Source: a virus
DNA: 35,236 bases
Reading direction: 5' to 3' (one strand)
IMG/VR virus record: IMGVR_UViG_3300035703_000252
Location: 1-35,236 of that record
The translations under genes were made by a program, and so were the position numbers. This document shows positions 1,313 to 34,784 of this stretch, piece after piece (the first letter of the stretch is position 1; every line of letters starts with the position of its first letter). Under the pieces are notes generated by a model, which saw only the letters and a program-made list of their open reading frames with translations, was not told the origin of the DNA and made no database searches.

Positions 1313-1846
1313 CTACGCTTCGTATTTGGCTAGGCGGTCGGCCACCCATGCCACAACACGCGGGTCTTGCTTCTTGTAGGCTGCGCGGATGCGGTTCCCG
1401 CAGTTCATGCGACGTGCCCCGAGATTCAGGTGGGCGTATTTGGCCTCTAACACCACGTAGTCAATCGAGAGCAATTGCGACGCCACCACCATGACCTCCT
1501 GCCAATCGAGGTACTCCAATGCGCGGGCCACTGGGTCGCCGTTGTTCAGCGATTTCTTGCCGGACTTGGCTATAGAGAGCATGTAGCGCTCGCGGTATTT
1601 CTTGAGCTGTTCGGTCATCTTGCTGGCGGTGACTTCCTCGTCTTCCAGCTCAGCGTCGATTTCGTCAAGCTCGCTGGCGTCGACCAACTCCATGTCTGCG
1701 TGACGGGCCTTGAGCGTAACTTCAGGTTCATCACGTAACGCCAGTGTGTACCAGCCTTTGTTGAGGCCCTTAACTAGCCACAGGTCGTCGCCCTCGTCGG
1801 CTACCCGTACGATTGCGTCAATTGCGAAAGGAATGTTTGTGTTCAT
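1313..1846 (-). CDS. Early protein with AKYAHLN/RMN-GNRIR domain (177 aa), paralogue of 34284-34784
   Basis: The start at 1846 is supported by GGAG seven bases upstream and by the promoter at 1874-1902; earlier in-frame ATGs fall inside the promoter and repeat region. Residues about 1-55 look like a small beta domain (IVRVADEGDDLWLVKGLNKG) and residues 56-80 are very acidic. The C-terminal part (about 95-160) carries SLNNGD, AKYAHLN-G, RMN and GNRIR motifs, shared in order with the protein encoded at 34284-34784. I recall this domain only in phage proteins of unknown function. The conserved Asn/Arg-rich block could bind nucleic acid, which is inference. Confidence 0.75.
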   Translation of the reverse strand: MNTNIPFAIDAIVRVADEGDDLWLVKGLNKGWYTLALRDEPEVTLKARHADMELVDASELDEIDAELEDEEVTASKMTEQLKKYRERYMLSIAKSGKKSLNNGDPVARALEYLDWQEVMVVASQLLSIDYVVLEAKYAHLNLGARRMNCGNRIRAAYKKQDPRVVAWVADRLAKYEA

Positions 1847-23019: not shown

Positions 23020-23475
23020 TCAGGCAGCGGATACCAAGTCCGCCATCCTTTTTGCGCGAGCGGGGGAATCCGCCCGCGCCCATTTGGAGTTCATCATTTC
23101 TTTGGCCGCCTCTCGGAACAACCGCGCTTCCATGTGGCGCAAGGTGTTCTTGAATCCCAGTAGGCCGCTGACCCCCAACTGGTATGCCATACATATCAAC
23201 ACCATCTGCACTACGTTAGGCATCCTAACGATGGGCGGGAATTTAGCTATCAGTTCGTCGCACACGTCGTCCACGGTGGCTACCAGCATGGCGTGGGCAG
23301 CTGGCTCCGGCATGCTAAACACGTACATATCCAAGGGTGCATCCTTGGGGCCGATTTTTGTTCCATATCCAATCGTCGGATAGCCATTGCTGCAATAATA
23401 AGGCTTCAGCCGATATCCCTCATCGACTTTCAGTGTCTCAACCGCACGGTTTTTAGCTACTTTTATCATGTCCAT
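23020..23475 (-). CDS. Endolysin, T4-type lysozyme (GH24)
   Basis: The 151-residue protein has the GH24 muramidase active-site region: E19 in VDEGYRLKPYY, then C28, then T34 in GYPTIGYG. The spacings equal E11-D20-T26 of T4 lysozyme, with Cys replacing the Asp as in many phage GH24 enzymes. It cleaves peptidoglycan. There is no signal or anchor segment, so it needs a holin. I chose the ATG at 23475, which has GGAG seven bases upstream, over 23493. It is the last gene of the leftward replication block, not part of the late block. Confidence 0.88.
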   Translation of the reverse strand: MDMIKVAKNRAVETLKVDEGYRLKPYYCSNGYPTIGYGTKIGPKDAPLDMYVFSMPEPAAHAMLVATVDDVCDELIAKFPPIVRMPNVVQMVLICMAYQLGVSGLLGFKNTLRHMEARLFREAAKEMMNSKWARADSPARAKRMADLVSAA

Positions 23476-23758
23476 GTTTTTTCTCCAGTTCAATGATGAA
23501 TGCTGCGCAGCTCATGACTGCTGCTAAGTGGTGGAACCCGTCCTTGTCCATCGTCTCCCCCGCCATGTAAGCGAAAGTGTGACGGAGCAGGGCGGCTTTA
23601 TACCGTTCGATGCCGTCTTGGAGTAGCGCCCAATTGCCAGCTCCATATTTCGCTGCTCCGATCGTCAAATTGGTGACCATGGCTTCGATAGCCAATGGCG
23701 GTAGCAGGTCATATCGCAATTTACCGCTGTCGAACTTAATGCCTACCGCGTTTTCCAT
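23453..23758 (-). CDS. DUF5664 protein (dATP/dGTP diphosphohydrolase N-terminal-like)
   Basis: The 101-residue sequence has the family pattern KFDSGKLRYDLLPPLAIEAM, GAAKYGAGNWALLQDGIERY, LLRHTFAYMAGE and DGFHHLAAVMSCAAFIIEL. This is the small helical domain known as DUF5664, which as I recall Pfam renamed after phage dATP/dGTP diphosphohydrolases. Here it stands alone, downstream of purZ-mazZ-datZ. It could be a second nucleotide pyrophosphohydrolase or a partner of the short MazG-like protein. It overlaps the nuclease gene by 16 bases and the lysozyme start by 23. Confidence 0.75.
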   Translation of the reverse strand: MENAVGIKFDSGKLRYDLLPPLAIEAMVTNLTIGAAKYGAGNWALLQDGIERYKAALLRHTFAYMAGETMDKDGFHHLAAVMSCAAFIIELEKKHGHDKSS

Positions 23759-24186
23759 TCGATCTTCTCCTCTGTTATGATTCGGGCTAGTTCGACATAG
23801 TCAATCGAACCGGCCCATATGGTTGTCGCGTTCAACAGCGCGACGTTCCACGTGAGCTTTTCACTGAGCACGGAATCCATGTTAGACTCTTTAACTCTTA
23901 TCAAGGCATAGCTTGGAGTATCGCTGACATGAATCCCGACTAAAACATATTGGTGGTGTCCACCGGCTTTGATTCTTTCGCGAAACCACGCCTTCTGCGT
24001 ATTCCGGATTTCAATGGCTCCGTTAACTTTAGCTACTTTGAGTTCAATGAAACCGTCTGTGTTGTGCCCGAAATAGTGCGTGTCAGGTATACCAGCACTG
24101 GTAGCATGCGATTCAATCTGGCTAACATGGAACCCGAGCCTGCGCAATTCGACCCCCAGTTTACGGCGTACGTTGCTTTCTTTCAT
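23743..24186 (-). CDS. VRR-NUC type nuclease, PD-(D/E)XK fold (147 aa)
   Basis: AGIPDTHYF (P34, D35) followed by FIELKVAK (E48, K50) is the PD...ExK active site with the VRR-NUC spacing. The N-terminus SNVRRKLGVELRRLGF is also typical. Family members cut branched or free-ended DNA, so roles include Holliday-junction-like resolution or host DNA degradation. The gene starts within the datZ stop (ATGA) and so is translated with the Z-genome cassette. The C-terminal half is unfamiliar. Confidence 0.82.
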   Translation of the reverse strand: MKESNVRRKLGVELRRLGFHVSQIESHATSAGIPDTHYFGHNTDGFIELKVAKVNGAIEIRNTQKAWFRERIKAGGHHQYVLVGIHVSDTPSYALIRVKESNMDSVLSEKLTWNVALLNATTIWAGSIDYVELARIITEEKIEWKTR

Positions 24187-24722
24187 TCTGTCCAGTCCTC
24201 ACTCATGACTTGCTCACGTATTTCATGTAAGACCAACCCCATTTTATCCGCAGTGAGTTCGCTCAACTCTGGAAAGGCGTACCGAGTGTTGATCAGCATA
24301 GTGTCGTACGCGTGGTTTAATTGTTGCAGTACTGCCTTGGCTCTCCGGCCCGTACCGAAGTTGGTCAAAAAATGTATACTATCTAGTAGGTCGGCTGCCT
24401 TCAAGAAATAGCGGTATTCTATGGGCAACAATTTAGACGAGCCTGACACCATTTTATCCAACTCCAATGGGTCAAACCCCAAGTCTCTCATCTTGGTTTT
24501 AGTGGGAGTAGGTATATCGCCTAGCACAGCCTCTTCCATGTCGTGGGCTAACGCCGCCGCAGTGATGGTGGCCGCTACCATCGATACCGGAGCTATTGCT
24601 GCCATCGACGCCGCGATAATGGCGACATTAAAGCTATGTTCAGCTACCGACTGAGGACGCGTAGTTGGTACTATCGTCCACCGTTGAGTGTGTTGGAGTC
24701 TCATTTTGTCACATAATTTCAT
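24183..24722 (-). CDS. datZ: HD-domain dATP triphosphohydrolase, DatZ candidate
   Basis: In Z-genome phages DatZ removes the triphosphate from dATP so that adenine is not incorporated. The 179-residue protein is YfbR-like: VAEHS gives H29, AHDMEEA gives H60-D61 and E64, GDIPTPTK follows, and KAADLLD gives an Asp near 111. These are the metal ligands and catalytic residues of the HD fold. It is coupled by ATGA overlaps to the MazG-like gene before it and to the nuclease gene after it. The dATP specificity is inferred from context beside purZ; an ordinary YfbR-like nucleotidase would look similar. Confidence 0.87.
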   Translation of the reverse strand: MKLCDKMRLQHTQRWTIVPTTRPQSVAEHSFNVAIIAASMAAIAPVSMVAATITAAALAHDMEEAVLGDIPTPTKTKMRDLGFDPLELDKMVSGSSKLLPIEYRYFLKAADLLDSIHFLTNFGTGRRAKAVLQQLNHAYDTMLINTRYAFPELSELTADKMGLVLHEIREQVMSEDWTE

Positions 24723-24982
24723 TTTCTCGTCCTATATGTTCTTATGGCCTGTGCCACTATCGCCAACAAAAAGTTCTGTACGTCGCCCGCTTCCTGAATT
24801 ACGTCATTCAGTCCGCCGTCTATCATGGCGTCTTCGAGTTCGGCTATTTCTTCTTTCAGCTTAGCCATCAGTGTCAAGGGATCCACGTCGGTGATGTCGC
24901 CCTTATGACGGTTCATCACCATTTTAACAGAAGCCATCGAATTGACGGCTTCTGATGCATCCCTGATTAAGGGATTGTCCAT
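24719..24982 (-). CDS. mazZ: MazG-like nucleotide pyrophosphohydrolase, MazZ candidate (87 aa)
   Basis: The all-alpha NTP pyrophosphatase signature is present: E44, E45 and E48 in LKEEIAELEDA, then E64 and D67 in QEAGDVQNFL, which bind magnesium. In the Z pathway MazZ converts dGTP to dGMP, the substrate of PurZ. At 87 residues it is very short. The gene starts in the purZ stop (TAATG) and ends in the datZ start (ATGA), so the three are translated together. Substrate is inferred from this context. Confidence 0.82.
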   Translation of the reverse strand: MDNPLIRDASEAVNSMASVKMVMNRHKGDITDVDPLTLMAKLKEEIAELEDAMIDGGLNDVIQEAGDVQNFLLAIVAQAIRTYRTRK

Positions 24983-26025
24983 TACTTGTATCCTCTGTAT
25001 TGAGCGTATTCAACGATGTCTGACTGCTTAGGTCCGTACCCGAAGTAGCGCATGGTGCAGTGTGCGCCGACATCATATTTCGCTTTTTCAATTACATTGG
25101 CCACTTTCATCGCGGTCTCGTGATCGTAATTGCAGAAATTGAGGAATACTTCATCTGGACGGCATGCCATCAAAGCTTCACGGATTTGTTGCTCGGAGAA
25201 TGTGAACACGCGACGCACTCGCTTGGTGACAGTAGTCAATTCCTGTTCCACTCCTAACTCGTCCCATGACGTCTCTACTTGATCAGGGTAGATGTGACCT
25301 GAGAAACCGTCCGCCGTGTTTCCGACTCTAATGGGGTGGACACGGGCTGTGCCGACGACTGTAACATCGAAGCTGTGGGGAATGCCGCAGTCCGCAAGGA
25401 ATCGGGCCGGTGTGCAGTCTCGGCTCGTGCAGTAGGGCCAAAAACCTGCGTTAAGTCCAAGACTATAACCTTGAGCGCCTTCGGCGAGAATGAAGTTCGA
25501 TGCATATATTATACTTAACCATTCTGATTGAGTTACGACACAACCTTCGAATTCGGTGCCTTTTAACCGGACGACGGCGCGGTGGTCGTTTTGCGGATTG
25601 CGACTGATTTTCGATACCAGCGCTGCGCCGCTGCCCTGCATAGTGCTGCTGATATGCGACAGCGTTTGGCGTTCTTGTTCAGCGTGGGACTCATCCAACA
25701 CCACAGCGTCTTGGTGGATGACCAACCGAACGCCTTCTCGGCTGAAGATATCAGCGCTATCATAGAACTCTTCACGTAGACGATCCAAACTGAAAATCGA
25801 ACCCGCACCTAGCATCACGTTGCGCAGATTCGGGGATACGATGCCATTAGGCAAAACTTTGTGCATCCACTTCCGGCCAGCCGCGTTAATATATGTGTGA
25901 CCAGCGTTAGGCATATTGGCGTTGATAACTGTGTCTGGCTTGTCGCGTTCAGCGATGTAGCCAGCGATGAGGCCTTTGCCCGTCGAACCGAATTGTAAGT
26001 CTACGATTAGTGTAACTTTAGTCAT
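24982..26025 (-). CDS. purZ: PurZ, succino-2-aminodeoxyadenylate synthase
   Basis: This is the key enzyme of diaminopurine genomes: it joins aspartate to dGMP with ATP, a branch of the adenylosuccinate synthetase family. The 347-residue protein is shorter than bacterial PurA (about 430). The PurA loop GDEGKG is GSTGKG here (residues 13-18), so the catalytic Asp is Ser, the change known in phage PurZ enzymes. NAGHT (40-44) keeps the family His, and VMLGAGSIFSLDRL aligns with the PurA dimer and ligand region. AGGAAAC precedes the start. It lies next to mazZ, datZ and the PrimPol gene. Confidence 0.93.
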   Translation of the reverse strand: MTKVTLIVDLQFGSTGKGLIAGYIAERDKPDTVINANMPNAGHTYINAAGRKWMHKVLPNGIVSPNLRNVMLGAGSIFSLDRLREEFYDSADIFSREGVRLVIHQDAVVLDESHAEQERQTLSHISSTMQGSGAALVSKISRNPQNDHRAVVRLKGTEFEGCVVTQSEWLSIIYASNFILAEGAQGYSLGLNAGFWPYCTSRDCTPARFLADCGIPHSFDVTVVGTARVHPIRVGNTADGFSGHIYPDQVETSWDELGVEQELTTVTKRVRRVFTFSEQQIREALMACRPDEVFLNFCNYDHETAMKVANVIEKAKYDVGAHCTMRYFGYGPKQSDIVEYAQYRGYK

Positions 26026-26034
26026 GATTGTTTC

Positions 26035-28362
26035 CTAAATGTCGCGTCCAGTTATGTGTTTAAATCTCTCGACTGCCTCGTCTAGCGTTGGCAATTCGAA
26101 TACCCGAACCCGAACCCCGTCAGGGAACAGGCTTGCGGAAGGGCGTGTGGTTTTAAGGCCATACTCTTCCATGCGGCTGTAGAACATAGGCTTATTGAAG
26201 ATAGAACGCGGTTCGCGCCGTTTGGCGTTACACCAATTCTCATAATTCTCAAACAGCCCTGCTCTATCGGCCAATCTTGGCCATGCTGATTTGCCGTCAA
26301 TGTCGGCACTCATATTGGCATAATCCATGACATTGATGCTACCGGCCTCCAATTGGTCGGCCCACCACTCAACCACTGTGTCACGATAAGAGGCAGCGTA
26401 ACGGTTGCGCTGGTCTATCAGTAATTCCGTTTCCGGTGCGCGCTGTAGGTTATTAGTGATTTCACGCTCCATCAAGTCGTACATCATGGCTTCGATTCCG
26501 CCATTGTCCATTTCGGAGTAGATGTCGCGGAACCACTTCATGTCTTTAACGCGGTGGTTAGACGCTTTGAGAACGAACCAACGACGTGATTGCGGCCCAG
26601 CTGGGATGAACCAATCCTCGTTTGACGCCATGGCAACATGGCACATGTTGCGGTAGTTGTACGCATCCATGCCTTTGCGCTCACATAACAAAGTCTTCTC
26701 AGTCACCAGCGCTTTAAGAGCACCGGCATGGCGTTTGTCGCCGCCGTAAATCACCTCATCTGCGAATACCAATAGCGCGTCCTGCATATGGGCGTTGAAG
26801 TCACCTGTCAAGTGTTTGTCGTGAGTCAAATGCTTATAATGGCGTCCGACTGTGCGGCCCATGGCTTCGACAAAAGTACCCTTACCGCAACCTTCGTCGC
26901 CCTTCATTACGATAGCGACGCCTTTCGGGTTAGCTGGATCTTGGTAAAAGTCAGCCATCCAATCCAGAATCCACTCAAAGTAAGAGGTGTTCCCGTCGCA
27001 AATTACTTCAAGAATGTGCTGGCGGAGTTTGCTCCAATTTCCCTTAATGGGATTGACACGCCATCCGCGCCACAAATTGTACGCCAGCCCCGATGGCGTT
27101 TGGAATTCTTCCGGCTTATCGGGCCGGAACTCGACCCCGCCAGTGAACTCGCGACGGCGCTCGTCTGCCAGCCAAATGGCGGTTTTTGGTACTGCCTTGG
27201 TCTGCCCGTTATTACTCGCGACTGAAATCTTCTTATTCATGGTCAGACTTTTGAAGTCATCCAGCGTAAGGAACGTCAAATCCTTGTCGGGGTCAGCGTT
27301 AATGGAATTGGCGATGATACGAACCTTGCCGCCAATCACAGCCACGCCATACTCTTTGTTCAACTCATCGATCAAGACATCGTATTCGCCTTTGACGGAG
27401 AAATCCACCTCATCGACTAGTTGCGGCTTGGGCACGAAACCGAATCGCTTGGCGTGGTAGTAGATTGTGCCGATGCGGACTGGGCCATATGACTTGAAGC
27501 CCGACCAGCGCACATGGCATTCACCTTCTTTGTATCGCTCGCCTTTCTGTGACCAAGCATCCCAACAGCGCAAACCCTTCTCATCTGGATGTTGAGAGTG
27601 AATAGCTTGTCCGATCCGCAACCAGTCATCGTAGGCGAGATTGTCGGGGTTGATCGTCTGCAGCATGTCCCAGATTTCACGCAGAGTGTGCAGCCTTTCA
27701 ACGTCGTCTTCGTCTAGGTTTTCGTTCCCTCGGCCCGTGCCACGTGCGTTCTGTAGATCCCATGGGTCGCCCAGCAACTCGCCGATCCAATCCGGAGCAT
27801 CAGGCACAGAGCCAAACTCTTCCCACTCGTAAGCTTCGCCGTCGATTTCAGATGGCCACGCAACGATGTGCGAACGGCATTGGCCGTTGCCGCCGCGCGT
27901 GTCGACGCCGCGCCCGATTTTAGCCGTGGAAGATGAACCGGACTCGAACCAATTAAACAGAAAATGCTTACCGCCGCTCGGAGTCCGCTGAATAACACCT
28001 TTAATCTTACCGTGGTCTTTTTCGATGGCGGCAAGTGTATCATACCCTGAAAACCCATTCTTGTCTACCTTATCCACGTCTATGGCGAAAATGCCGTCTT
28101 CAGCTCCGCATGCCAAGCCGACGTTCCAACCCCAATATTTGCCTTCGGGTCCGAACCAGCCAGCTACAGTGGCAGGGTCCTTGGATGCGTGGCTGTATGT
28201 GAGGCCATCTTTCTTTTCTGGTATTGCTTTCCCGTTAGGTCTGATTGGAATAACATAGAACCCCTGCTCCGCGTAGTAGACAGCTGCTGCCAGCACCCGA
28301 TGCGGGAAGCTATCTAGAGCAGCTATCTGCTTTACGGCCAGCGGGTCGATTTTCTTCATCAT
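26035..28362 (-). CDS. PrimPol-helicase fusion
   Basis: The 775-residue replication protein has three parts. Residues about 20-185 are an archaeo-eukaryotic primase-polymerase domain (FYVIPIRPNGKAIPEKK; FAIDVDK metal motif; TPSGGKHFLF). Residues about 230-305 are a PriCT-like domain (YDDWLRIGQAIHSQHPD). Residues about 390-640 are a superfamily 3/DUF5906-like helicase with Walker A GDEGCGKGT near 484-491 and Walker B ALLVFADE near 528-535. It would prime and unwind the phage genome. Its start overlaps the DNA polymerase stop (TAATG), so the two are made together. Confidence 0.87.
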   Translation of the reverse strand: MMKKIDPLAVKQIAALDSFPHRVLAAAVYYAEQGFYVIPIRPNGKAIPEKKDGLTYSHASKDPATVAGWFGPEGKYWGWNVGLACGAEDGIFAIDVDKVDKNGFSGYDTLAAIEKDHGKIKGVIQRTPSGGKHFLFNWFESGSSSTAKIGRGVDTRGGNGQCRSHIVAWPSEIDGEAYEWEEFGSVPDAPDWIGELLGDPWDLQNARGTGRGNENLDEDDVERLHTLREIWDMLQTINPDNLAYDDWLRIGQAIHSQHPDEKGLRCWDAWSQKGERYKEGECHVRWSGFKSYGPVRIGTIYYHAKRFGFVPKPQLVDEVDFSVKGEYDVLIDELNKEYGVAVIGGKVRIIANSINADPDKDLTFLTLDDFKSLTMNKKISVASNNGQTKAVPKTAIWLADERRREFTGGVEFRPDKPEEFQTPSGLAYNLWRGWRVNPIKGNWSKLRQHILEVICDGNTSYFEWILDWMADFYQDPANPKGVAIVMKGDEGCGKGTFVEAMGRTVGRHYKHLTHDKHLTGDFNAHMQDALLVFADEVIYGGDKRHAGALKALVTEKTLLCERKGMDAYNYRNMCHVAMASNEDWFIPAGPQSRRWFVLKASNHRVKDMKWFRDIYSEMDNGGIEAMMYDLMEREITNNLQRAPETELLIDQRNRYAASYRDTVVEWWADQLEAGSINVMDYANMSADIDGKSAWPRLADRAGLFENYENWCNAKRREPRSIFNKPMFYSRMEEYGLKTTRPSASLFPDGVRVRVFELPTLDEAVERFKHITGRDI

Positions 28363-30242
28363 TATTTTTGTTCTCCGTTCTTAGCGGCCCACCAATTCTT
28401 ACCCGCACCGTCAAGATCTAGTATTAACGGTACGCGGAATTTTATGTCATTTATGTTTTCAATTGCTTCTTTTACCCGTTTGAACACTGGACGCCAGTTG
28501 GGGTCCATGGCCATGGAATAACTATCGTGTGTATTCAGGATCAGATGCCCGTCATTGCCCATGGCTTCTCCGCATTTGATCCAATTGCGTTTGTTAACAT
28601 CGGCTGCGGTGGCCTGAATCAACAGGCCCGATGCCTTGTATGACTTGTACCCCTTGGGGAATCTTAGCTTGCGACCTGCTCTGGTTCTAACGTACTCGCG
28701 CTGTTCGGCCACCGATTTCGCTCGGTCCGCCAAGTCTTTAACGCCCTGCACCCGCGAGTGATACAGGTCTATTGCTTTATTCGCTTCTGGTCCAGCTTTC
28801 CGGTATCGGATTACTTTGCCGCTTTTGTCGGTGAATTGATCCCATTGCCATGGCATCCCCATCTTTGCGGCTGTGGCACCACGGCCTTGGTTGAAAATCA
28901 TAGACAGATTCAATTGCTTGGCGTTAGGTTGACCACTGTATGTCGCATTGCGAGGCAATCCAGTCATGTCGCCTACCCACTGGTGGAAGTCGAGGCTAGG
29001 CTGTTTAGCATATGCTTGGACGAGCGAGTCGTTATACGCGGATACTAGGTGAGCGAACACGCGCACTTCGAATGAGGCTAAATCCGTCTCCACCCACACC
29101 ATGCCTTCAGGCGGAAGAAAACAGGGCTTGACGATAGATGCGATTTTCTTGTTGCGGGCCGGTATCTGTTGCATGGCTGGCTCGGTGTAGCTCAGACGAC
29201 CTGTGCCCGTGCCACCATCATCGCCCTTGGCTTGGTTTATGGTGGGGTAGACCACACCATGATGCGCATGTTCGATTATGTGCTTACCTAAAAACACGTC
29301 CCGAGTCTTAATCAAAGACCGGATCGACGTGATTAGACTTGCGGCTGGGTGAGACATATCATGCATTATGTCACCCTTAAACGATGGCTGGCCCTTGTCA
29401 GTGGTTCCGATTTGCGTCCCATCGTTCGCAATCCATGCACCGACAGTCGCATCCCACTTAGGGTCGAACAGCTTGCAAATCTGCGGGCCGCTGTTGACGT
29501 TGATGCTGAATCCTGCGATGTCGTTCAATTGGCGTTGCAAGATGCTGATTTCGTCTGTCAATGCGGGCTGGGCAGCGGCGGCAGCGTCGACATCTACTCG
29601 GATTCCACGCATTTCAGCTCTCACCAATTCAGGGAAGACCGATTGCTCAAACTCCACGATGTTGCGTATCCCTTGACGTTCGATCTCTTCTTCTTGCCAC
29701 AGGTACAGATCTAACGTAACGCGAGTATCCTTTCTTGCGTAACGTTGAACAAGCTCAGTAGGCAACTCGGTAATTCGTGCCATAATCCTATCTTTGGACA
29801 TGCGAGAGTCACCGAAGATAGTACGCGCCTCTTCATAGAATCGTTCGTCTTTACGCATTTGAAGGTACTTATTACCGAGAGCATCAAGACTGTACCCTTC
29901 TGGTCTACTGCGTGTCCACGGAAATACAGTTGATTCGTGTTCGTTGATGAGACATGCACGAACAACAGTACACCGGACTCTTTCAAGTGGAAGTTTAACT
30001 CCAATAGTGTCGAGCATTTTTGTATCAAAGCTCGCGTAATGGGCAGCGATCTCACCTTTAAAGTGCCGCAGCTCGTCGTTGAGGTATTGAGGGATTTCTG
30101 GTTGGAGTCTAAGGTCCCATGCATAGTCTCTATCCTCGGTGCTTATGCTGATCATGAACGGCCTGTCTTTCGGGTATTTAGTCCCAGTCGTTTCAGTATC
30201 GATAGCAAAAATTGGTAGGTCGCGTAACGTTGGAAAATCCAT
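28362..30242 (-). CDS. dpoZ: Family A DNA polymerase with 3'-5' exonuclease, DpoZ candidate
   Basis: The 626 residues correspond to a Klenow-like enzyme without 5' nuclease. Exonuclease motifs: D15-x-E17, D73 in AHYASFD, and YARKD near 168-172. Polymerase motif A is ETDLASFEVRV (D387), motif B is NAKQLNLSMIFNQG (K442), and motif C is NTHDSYSM with D573. Motif C reads HDS instead of HDE, and the motif B positions equal to R754 and F762 of Pol I appear to be Gln and Leu. DpoZ polymerases of Z-phages favour diaminopurine over adenine; that preference is inferred from co-location with purZ. GAGGG precedes the ATG. Confidence 0.9.
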   Translation of the reverse strand: MDFPTLRDLPIFAIDTETTGTKYPKDRPFMISISTEDRDYAWDLRLQPEIPQYLNDELRHFKGEIAAHYASFDTKMLDTIGVKLPLERVRCTVVRACLINEHESTVFPWTRSRPEGYSLDALGNKYLQMRKDERFYEEARTIFGDSRMSKDRIMARITELPTELVQRYARKDTRVTLDLYLWQEEEIERQGIRNIVEFEQSVFPELVRAEMRGIRVDVDAAAAAQPALTDEISILQRQLNDIAGFSINVNSGPQICKLFDPKWDATVGAWIANDGTQIGTTDKGQPSFKGDIMHDMSHPAASLITSIRSLIKTRDVFLGKHIIEHAHHGVVYPTINQAKGDDGGTGTGRLSYTEPAMQQIPARNKKIASIVKPCFLPPEGMVWVETDLASFEVRVFAHLVSAYNDSLVQAYAKQPSLDFHQWVGDMTGLPRNATYSGQPNAKQLNLSMIFNQGRGATAAKMGMPWQWDQFTDKSGKVIRYRKAGPEANKAIDLYHSRVQGVKDLADRAKSVAEQREYVRTRAGRKLRFPKGYKSYKASGLLIQATAADVNKRNWIKCGEAMGNDGHLILNTHDSYSMAMDPNWRPVFKRVKEAIENINDIKFRVPLILDLDGAGKNWWAAKNGEQK

Positions 30243-30256
30243 GTCTCATCCCTCTA

Positions 30257-30544
30257 TCAAAAAGGAATGTCGTCATCGAAATCGATGTCGTCGCTTGCTT
30301 TCTTCGCTGGAGCGGACACGGGCTTATTGACACTGGCGTCATCTGCTGTGAAAGCTAAACTGATGAACCGGTCTACGCCATTTTTCATCATCTTAGTCCA
30401 CGCTGATAGCCAGAATTTAGACACCGCGCCACAGTGAGGGCAAGCTAACTCACAATGGCCTTTTGAATTGGGGGATTTCTCGCTAGTTCTCTTGTCGTTC
30501 TTGAACAGGACACCGGAATTGAGGTTGTTGGATTGTTGGTTCAT
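30257..30544 (-). CDS. Small protein with SSB-like acidic tail (95 aa)
   Basis: The N-terminal region SGVLFKNDKRTSEKSPNSKG followed by WLSAWTKMMKNGVDRFISLAF follows a pattern found in small phage proteins of unknown function. C31, C35 and C38 (CELACPHC) may hold a metal. The C-terminus DIDFDDDIPF is an acidic tail of the single-stranded-DNA-binding-protein type, which usually docks partner proteins. It lies directly upstream of the polymerase gene. It may be a replication accessory or a second ssDNA-binding protein. Confidence 0.65.
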   Translation of the reverse strand: MNQQSNNLNSGVLFKNDKRTSEKSPNSKGHCELACPHCGAVSKFWLSAWTKMMKNGVDRFISLAFTADDASVNKPVSAPAKKASDDIDFDDDIPF

Positions 30545-34283: not shown

Positions 34284-34784
34284 TTACTCTGCGGTCGGCT
34301 CAGTTTTAGCGGCAGCCAAAGCTTTCGCTTGGCGTTCAGCTTCTTTCTGCGCTTTAACAGCAGCAGCCTCGGCTTCGCGGGCTTCAACCTTTTCGCGGAA
34401 TGGGGCGGCCAATTGTTCGATGTAAACAGTGCCGCTCACTGATTCAGGCTCTGTGCCGACGTCTTTCGCCGCGTAATATGCCTTGTCCAGCTTGTTCAAT
34501 ACGCCACGGATTCGGTTGCCTAAGTTCATCCGTTGTTGGCCGATGTTCAGGTGGGCGTATTTGGCACGTAGATCGTCGATATCAGTGGCCGAAACTTCCG
34601 CTGCCAATTCATACGCTTCATCTAACGTCAGACCACTCATTGCGGTAGCAACGCGGTCGCCGTTGTTTAAAGATACCGAGCCAGACGCTGATTTCGCTTT
34701 CTGGTATTTCTCGGTGTTGGCCGCAATGCGGGTTTTAGCAGGTACAGATTCGGTTTGTGCGACAGCTTGTTCTAAATCACTCAT
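34284..34784 (-). CDS. Early protein with AKYAHLN/RMN-GNRIR domain (166 aa), paralogue of 1313-1846
   Basis: The central part (about residues 35-100) carries SLNNGD, LRAKYAHLN-G, QQRMN and GNRIRG motifs, matching the 177-residue protein at 1313-1846 over about 65 residues. The C-terminus is a long Ala/Lys/Glu helix (EAREAEAAAVKAQKEAERQA), unlike the acidic N-terminal extension of its paralogue. GGAG precedes the ATG, and the promoter at 34827-34855 lies 43 bases upstream. This strong promoter followed by a terminator suggests high early expression of this gene alone. Function is unknown. Confidence 0.75.
   Translation of the reverse strand: MSDLEQAVAQTESVPAKTRIAANTEKYQKAKSASGSVSLNNGDRVATAMSGLTLDEAYELAAEVSATDIDDLRAKYAHLNIGQQRMNLGNRIRGVLNKLDKAYYAAKDVGTEPESVSGTVYIEQLAAPFREKVEAREAEAAAVKAQKEAERQAKALAAAKTEPTAE

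What the first reader, a model, noticed from the sequence alone, without database searches (positions are those of the whole stretch)
23453..30242. Complete 2-aminoadenine (Z) genome cassette in one operon of a podovirus
The sequence shows purZ, a MazG-like gene and an HD phosphohydrolase gene in a translationally coupled chain, with a family A polymerase and a PrimPol-helicase immediately upstream on the same strand. From established work on Z-genome phages (PurZ, MazZ, DatZ, DpoZ), this set is sufficient to replace A by Z. The genome therefore probably contains diaminopurine instead of adenine and should resist many restriction enzymes with A in their sites.
Basis: partly seen in the sequence, partly recalled or inferred. 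Interest (0 to 1): 0.85.

Follow-up and report, generated by a model that had tools for sequence, protein, structure and literature searches.

The report
Phage operon for 2-aminoadenine (Z) DNA
This uncultured virus carries, in one operon, the full known set of enzymes that lets some phages build their DNA with 2-aminoadenine instead of adenine; it is a new, divergent relative of already described Z-phages, with one extra nucleotide-trimming gene swapped in.

Summary
A 35,236-bp IMG/VR virus contig carries a minus-strand chain DpoZ > PrimPol-helicase > PurZ > MazZ-2 > DatZ > VRR-NUC-like nuclease > DUF5664, mostly with overlapping stop/start codons. PurZ and DpoZ pass NCBIfam's curated cut-offs for the Z-specific families (369 vs 300 and 835 vs 500 bits). 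Almost every published catalytic and specificity residue of PurZ, DatZ and DpoZ that I checked is kept. Gene order matches Alteromonas phage ZP6 and Vibrio phage phiVC8 (60.9% and 55.7% PurZ identity): a new, divergent member of a known kind.

Two refinements. The 'MazG-like gene' is the MazZ-2 type, for which I found no reported assay; its motif and predicted fold fit a MazG-type pyrophosphohydrolase. No other of 67 PurZ loci compared pairs MazZ-2 with DUF5664.

A side result: ten viral contigs lack MazZ between PurZ and DatZ, and all carry DUF5664, suggesting it can replace MazZ. Actual Z content is inferred, not measured.

The parts
28362..30242 (-). DpoZ, family A DNA polymerase of the phiVC8-like clade with 3'-5' exonuclease
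   Evidence: NF038380 835.1 bits vs cut-off 500; best PDB match 7pbk, phiVC8 DpoZ, E 5.6e-215; exonuclease residues D26/E28/D85, clade residues L455, F459, G548, S583 and the three insertions kept
26035..28362 (-). PrimPol / PriCT-2 / helicase-like protein
   Evidence: Prim-Pol PF09250 5.3e-24, PriCT_2 2.6e-18, DUF5906 9.9e-25; phrog_1156 DNA primase 1.6e-93
24982..26025 (-). PurZ, 2-aminoadenylosuccinate synthetase
   Evidence: NF038379 369.4 bits vs 300; best PDB 6fm1, phiVC8 PurZ, E 3.5e-113; Ser replaces the PurA catalytic Asp13, dGMP/ATP pocket residues largely kept
24719..24982 (-). MazZ-2, MazG-like pyrophosphohydrolase (predicted dGTP to dGMP)
   Evidence: PRA-PH 1.3e-5 over cut-off, MazG 7e-4 just under it; tblastn finds only ZP6 and phiVC8-group phages; acids E45, E48, E64, D67 invariant in 13 homologues; AF2 pLDDT 94.5, MazG-type chains head the fold list, with S-2L MazZ 7ody at rank 10
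24183..24722 (-). DatZ, HD-domain dATP triphosphohydrolase
   Evidence: phrog_7076 5.5e-29; best PDB match 6zpa S-2L DatZ, E 7.1e-12; all 13 published catalytic, phosphate-contact, specificity and conserved residues kept
23743..24186 (-). VRR-NUC-like nuclease, conserved neighbour of Z operons
   Evidence: phrog_2165 7e-13; homologous to ZP6 'nuclease', phiVC8 p23 and phage Bm1; found in 67 of the 94 sequences then held
23453..23758 (-). stand-alone DUF5664 (dATP/dGTP diphosphohydrolase N-terminal domain) in the slot where ZP6 and phiVC8 have DUF6378
   Evidence: PF18909 1.7e-25; ZP6/phiVC8 position holds DUF6378; groups with ordinary Vibrio phages, 83/85
30257..30544 (-). small ssDNA-binding protein upstream of DpoZ
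   Evidence: phrog_7364 1.6e-11

Best explanation
It is a working Z-genome cassette of the phiVC8/ZP6 type. DatZ destroys dATP; MazZ-2 (helped or backed up by the extra DUF5664 protein) turns dGTP into dGMP; PurZ joins dGMP to aspartate to make 2-amino-adenylosuccinate; host enzymes finish dZMP and phosphorylate it to dZTP; DpoZ prefers dZTP over dATP and builds DNA with Z opposite T, with PrimPol-helicase priming and unwinding. Shown here: gene content, order, coupling, family membership, diagnostic residues. Inferred: the activities, the order of steps in this phage, and the Z content of its DNA.
For: NCBIfam curated cut-offs passed for PurZ and DpoZ. The closest solved structures by sequence are phiVC8 PurZ, phiVC8 DpoZ and S-2L DatZ, not PurA, Klenow or YfbR. 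Residue tests against published lists: PurZ S23, N49, A50, T132, R146, Q190, V241, TTVT loop, N305/F306 all kept; DatZ 13 of 13 including W20, I22, P79; DpoZ F459 (the only residue change shared by both DpoZ clades), L455, G548 and the insertions kept. MazZ-2 metal-binding acids invariant. Same gene order in ZP6 and phiVC8 and in many IMG/VR relatives.
Against: No Z has been measured in this virus, and the ZP6 paper text holds no mention of HPLC, mass spectrometry or digestion either. MazZ-2 activity is untested in the papers read. One PurZ pocket residue differs from S-2L (G130 is Ser, as in ZP6). The palindrome proxy for restriction escape was inconclusive.
Confidence: 0.92

Rival explanations
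1. Ordinary nucleotide-salvage operon: the synthetase is a normal PurA that uses IMP, and the MazG and HD proteins are housekeeping phosphohydrolases; the DNA is normal A-DNA.
For: PurZ is a PurA homologue (PF00709 7e-25), and DUF5664 is common in phages, including six in which no PurZ was found.
Against: PurA equivalog scores are far under their cut-offs (98.8 vs 395.6 bits) while the PurZ model is well over its own; the catalytic Asp is Ser; the polymerase is DpoZ.
Confidence: 0.03
2. The cassette is intact but replacement of A by Z is partial, as with the S-2L genes in E. coli.
For: Only 12.1% of plasmid A was replaced by the S-2L triad in E. coli (PMC8342488).
Against: That test had no DpoZ; this operon includes DpoZ with all clade features. 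PMC12884076 states that these phages show complete replacement.
Confidence: 0.08
3. DUF5664 rather than MazZ-2 is the main dGMP supplier here and MazZ-2 is becoming redundant.
For: DUF5664 of phage Wayne hydrolyses dGTP and dATP (PMC12884076); ten MazZ-less PurZ viral contigs all carry DUF5664.
Against: MazZ-2 in the window keeps all its invariant residues. The window's DUF5664 belongs to another branch than those of the MazZ-less viral loci, and Wayne DUF5664 is about ten times slower on dGTP than on dATP.
Confidence: 0.2

Closest known systems
Alteromonas phage ZP6 (Mareflavirus, MK203850) Z operon
   Same: Same order DpoZ > PrimPol > PurZ > MazG > DatZ > nuclease; PurZ 60.9% identical; window PurZ groups with ZP6, L010 and L011 (99/98)
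   Different: ZP6 has DUF6378 as last gene, the window has DUF5664; no near nucleotide match of the right-hand 20 kb to any record of the phages collection
Vibrio phage phiVC8 (Enhodamvirus) Z operon
   Same: Same order, MazZ-2 type, DpoZ clade; pathway established for this phage in the literature (PMC12884076)
   Different: PurZ 55.7% identical, an additional small ORF p24, DUF6378-like last gene
Cyanophage S-2L Z-cluster (datZ-mazZ-purZ)
   Same: Same three functions in the same order
   Different: S-2L uses MazZ-1 and a non-selective PrimPol without DpoZ
Acinetobacter phage SH-Ab 15497
   Same: PurZ, DatZ, DpoZ, and DUF5664 as a domain
   Different: There DUF5664 is fused to DUF550 (385 aa) between PurZ and DatZ; in the window it stands alone at the operon end beside MazZ-2

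Membership tests
PurZ | Score above NCBIfam NF038379 cut-off (300 bits) | tested here: met
   369.4 bits
PurZ | Ser in place of PurA catalytic Asp13 | tested here: met
   FGSTGKG; Ser at the S-2L S23 column
PurZ | Uses dGMP, aspartate and ATP/dATP | not testable with these tools
   Pocket residues kept; one substitution G130S shared with ZP6
DatZ | Metal ligands H34, H66, D67, D119 and phosphate contacts R19, K81, K116 | tested here: met
   all identical
DatZ | Adenine/deoxyribose specificity residues W20, I22, P79 | tested here: met
   all identical
MazZ-2 | Lies between purZ and datZ and groups with the phiVC8-like set | tested here: met
   tblastn hits only ZP6 and phiVC8-group phages
MazZ-2 | Four conserved acidic residues and an R83 counterpart | tested here: met
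   E45, E48, E64, D67 and R84/R86 invariant in 13 sequences
MazZ-2 | MazG-type all-alpha NTP-PPase fold | tested here: inconclusive
   AF2 pLDDT 94.5; MazG-type chains head the Foldseek list with E 0.05 or worse; profile match to 2p06 2.3e-4 and to MazG-related 2yxh 1.5e-3
DpoZ (phiVC8-like clade) | Score above NF038380 cut-off (500 bits) | tested here: met
   835.1 bits
DpoZ (phiVC8-like clade) | L455, F459, G548 and insertions 1-3 | tested here: met
   alignment to phiVC8 DpoZ
DpoZ (phiVC8-like clade) | Prefers dZTP to dATP | not testable with these tools
   needs enzyme assay
Z-genome phage | A replaced by Z in virion DNA | not testable with these tools
   metagenomic contig; no virions
DUF5664 of the PurZ-operon type | Groups with DUF5664 of other PurZ operons | tested here: not met
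   groups with ordinary Vibrio phages at 83/85, outside the PurZ-operon group (88/95); neither branch reaches the starred level

The most novel reading that the evidence does not exclude
The dGMP-supplying step of PurZ phages is interchangeable: a stand-alone DUF5664 protein can take over from MazZ. Ten viral contigs have PurZ running straight into DatZ with no MazZ found anywhere in the record, and every one carries DUF5664. The window, with MazZ-2 plus a DUF5664 taken from ordinary phages, would be a both-present stage. [quoted passage not shown]
Probability: 0.5. Interest if true: 0.45.

Novelty: new member of a known kind. Interest (0 to 1): 0.3.

Why it matters
It adds a divergent podovirus (PurZ 61% identical to the nearest isolate) to the list of predicted Z-DNA phages and shows that the nucleotide-pool part of the cassette is assembled from swappable parts. 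MazZ-2 and stand-alone DUF5664 from such operons are the untested links: assaying them would say how Z-phages obtain dGMP, which matters for producing Z-DNA in cells and for annotating metagenomic phages.

Tried and rejected
Palindrome avoidance as a sequence test of restriction escape: the window has 12 G/C-only 6-base palindromes against 59 expected while A-containing ones are near expectation (0.90), but six control phages in which no PurZ was found also avoid G/C-only ones (0.31-0.73), so it does not discriminate. Megablast of the right-hand 20 kb found no near relative in the phages collection. A significant Foldseek match for DUF5664: none; that model rests on 19 diverse sequences and no MazG likeness can be claimed or excluded; its VIA-align job was not collected. 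Tree-corrected test of 'MazZ absent with DUF5664': the raw Fisher p of 1.4e-6 ignores kinship; at most four independent pairs exist on the tree, too few for significance. A sequence profile of DUF5664 against solved structures gave nothing meaningful.

Full report
What the sequence holds. The window is an IMG/VR virus record of 35,236 bases. From 30242 down to 23453 the minus strand encodes DpoZ, a PrimPol/PriCT-2/DUF5906 helicase-like protein, PurZ, an 87-aa MazG-like protein, an HD phosphohydrolase, a 147-aa nuclease and a 101-aa DUF5664 protein. Stops and starts overlap by 1, 1, 4, 4 and 16 bases, with one 9-base gap between PrimPol and PurZ. A small ssDNA-binding protein precedes DpoZ. Portal, major capsid, tail and T7-type internal virion proteins on the plus strand support a podovirus.

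Family membership. PurZ scores 369.4 bits against the curated PurZ model (cut-off 300) while the PurA equivalogs stay far below their own cut-offs; the polymerase scores 835.1 bits against DpoZ_1 (cut-off 500). By sequence the best solved structures are phiVC8 PurZ (6fm1), phiVC8 DpoZ (7pbk) and S-2L DatZ (6zpa).

Residue tests. Residues were taken from PMC8342488, PMC8065100 and PMC8599892. In PurZ, Ser stands where PurA has its catalytic Asp, and the dGMP and ATP pocket is kept except for a Gly-to-Ser at S-2L position 130 that ZP6 shares; Q308 of S-2L is Asn as in phiVC8, and the column of S-2L R244 holds Thr in both the window and phiVC8. In DatZ all 13 listed residues are identical. In DpoZ the exonuclease acids, the pre-motif TGR, R440, L455, F459, G548, S583 and the three clade insertions are present; R161 is Lys, a variation the paper reports.

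The MazG-like protein. tblastn with it finds only ZP6 and phiVC8-group vibriophages, so it is MazZ-2. Over 13 homologues the acids E45, E48, E64 and D67 (an EExxE...ExxD pattern in the window) and R84/R86 are invariant. The AlphaFold2 model (pLDDT 94.5) is a three-helix protein whose Foldseek list is headed by 2p06 and MazG-related chains, with S-2L MazZ at rank 10, but none at a significant E-value, which is not unexpected for a short helical protein; VIA-align gives 2p06 Z 10.2 over 79 residues, under the level the tool trusts for helical bundles. A profile search adds weak sequence support (2p06 2.3e-4; MazG-related 2yxh 1.5e-3). I found no assay of a MazZ-2 protein in the papers read.

The extra gene. 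In ZP6 and phiVC8 the gene at the operon's end is DUF6378-like (PF19905; phiVC8's is below the cut-off); here it is DUF5664 (PF18909, 1.7e-25). [quoted passage not shown] in SH-Ab 15497 it is fused to DUF550 (PMC12884076). The window's copy lies with DUF5664 of Vibrio phages 1.054.O, PVA1 and SBP1 (83/85), outside the group formed by most stand-alone DUF5664 of PurZ operons (88/95); 642 phage records hold a relative. The window's PurZ groups with ZP6 and two viral contigs (99/98), all three MazZ-2 plus DUF6378. So the simplest history is a swap of DUF6378 for a DUF5664 from ordinary phages; that is an inference from moderately supported branches.

Survey of relatives. An alignment search of viral contigs found 212 stretches encoding PurZ relatives, of which 80 loci were kept. 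Profiles of nine families over all loci show, in the operons with PrimPol, a stable order DpoZ > PrimPol > PurZ > X > DatZ > nuclease > Y. X is MazZ-2, MazZ-1 or absent; Y, where found, is DUF6378 or DUF5664. In ten viral loci without X (L013-L016, L025, L028, L034, L040, L052, L068) the PurZ stop meets the DatZ start (gap -11 to +14 bases), and no MazZ-2, MazG or DUF550 match was found in the whole records. Those whole-record searches did ring in some relatives that carry MazZ but missed others (BUCT555 for PF04447), so their sensitivity is limited; the direct PurZ-DatZ junction is the stronger evidence. All ten carry DUF5664 and none DUF6378. An eleventh, a distant Desulfobulbus contig (L090), also lacks MazZ and has DUF5664 between PurZ and DatZ. 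Raw Fisher p is 1.4e-6, but the PurZ tree needs only four changes, so the association is suggestive, not proven. The window is the only MazZ-2 plus DUF5664 case among the 67 loci of the tree.

How it most likely works. DatZ removes dATP; MazZ-2, possibly helped by DUF5664, yields dGMP; PurZ makes dSMP; host enzymes yield dZTP; DpoZ incorporates it. The activities rest on characterised homologues; nothing was measured for this virus. The claim of restriction resistance is reasonable from the literature but was not testable here.

Verdict. Observation confirmed, interpretation supported, kind already known. New are the member itself, the MazZ-2 plus DUF5664 combination, and the lead that DUF5664 may replace MazZ.

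Noticed in passing
L013-L016, L025, L028, L034, L040, L052, L068: PurZ operons in which no MazZ was found; the PurZ stop meets the DatZ start and DUF5664 is always present downstream.
   Followed up: partly
L056:8053-8367, L083:8061-8486, L084:5398-5667: Gene between PurZ and DatZ that matches neither MazZ-1 nor MazZ-2 (phrog_2831, unknown function; one PurZ clade, 99/89): possibly a third kind of dGMP supplier.
   Followed up: partly
window 1364-1444 and 34485-34565: 73% identical 81-base repeat inside ORFs near both contig ends; minus-strand small genes at both ends suggest the contig is a circularly permuted, nearly complete genome.
   Followed up: no
L002 (phiVC8 18000-39422): GATC is almost absent (2 seen, 77 expected) although A-containing sites should be protected by Z; ZP6 32 vs 138. 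An ordinary Klebsiella phage also avoids it (6 vs 135).
   Followed up: no
L090 (Desulfobulbus sp. Tol-SR contig): PurZ-like, DUF5664, DatZ-like and DpoZ-like genes together on a contig of a bacterial genome assembly, perhaps a phage or prophage.
   Followed up: no
window 23453-23758 (phrog_2252, phrog_5033): These PHROG families are labelled 'endolysin; inhibits RNA polymerase' but match DUF5664 proteins, so phage records annotated from them may carry a misleading name.
   Followed up: no
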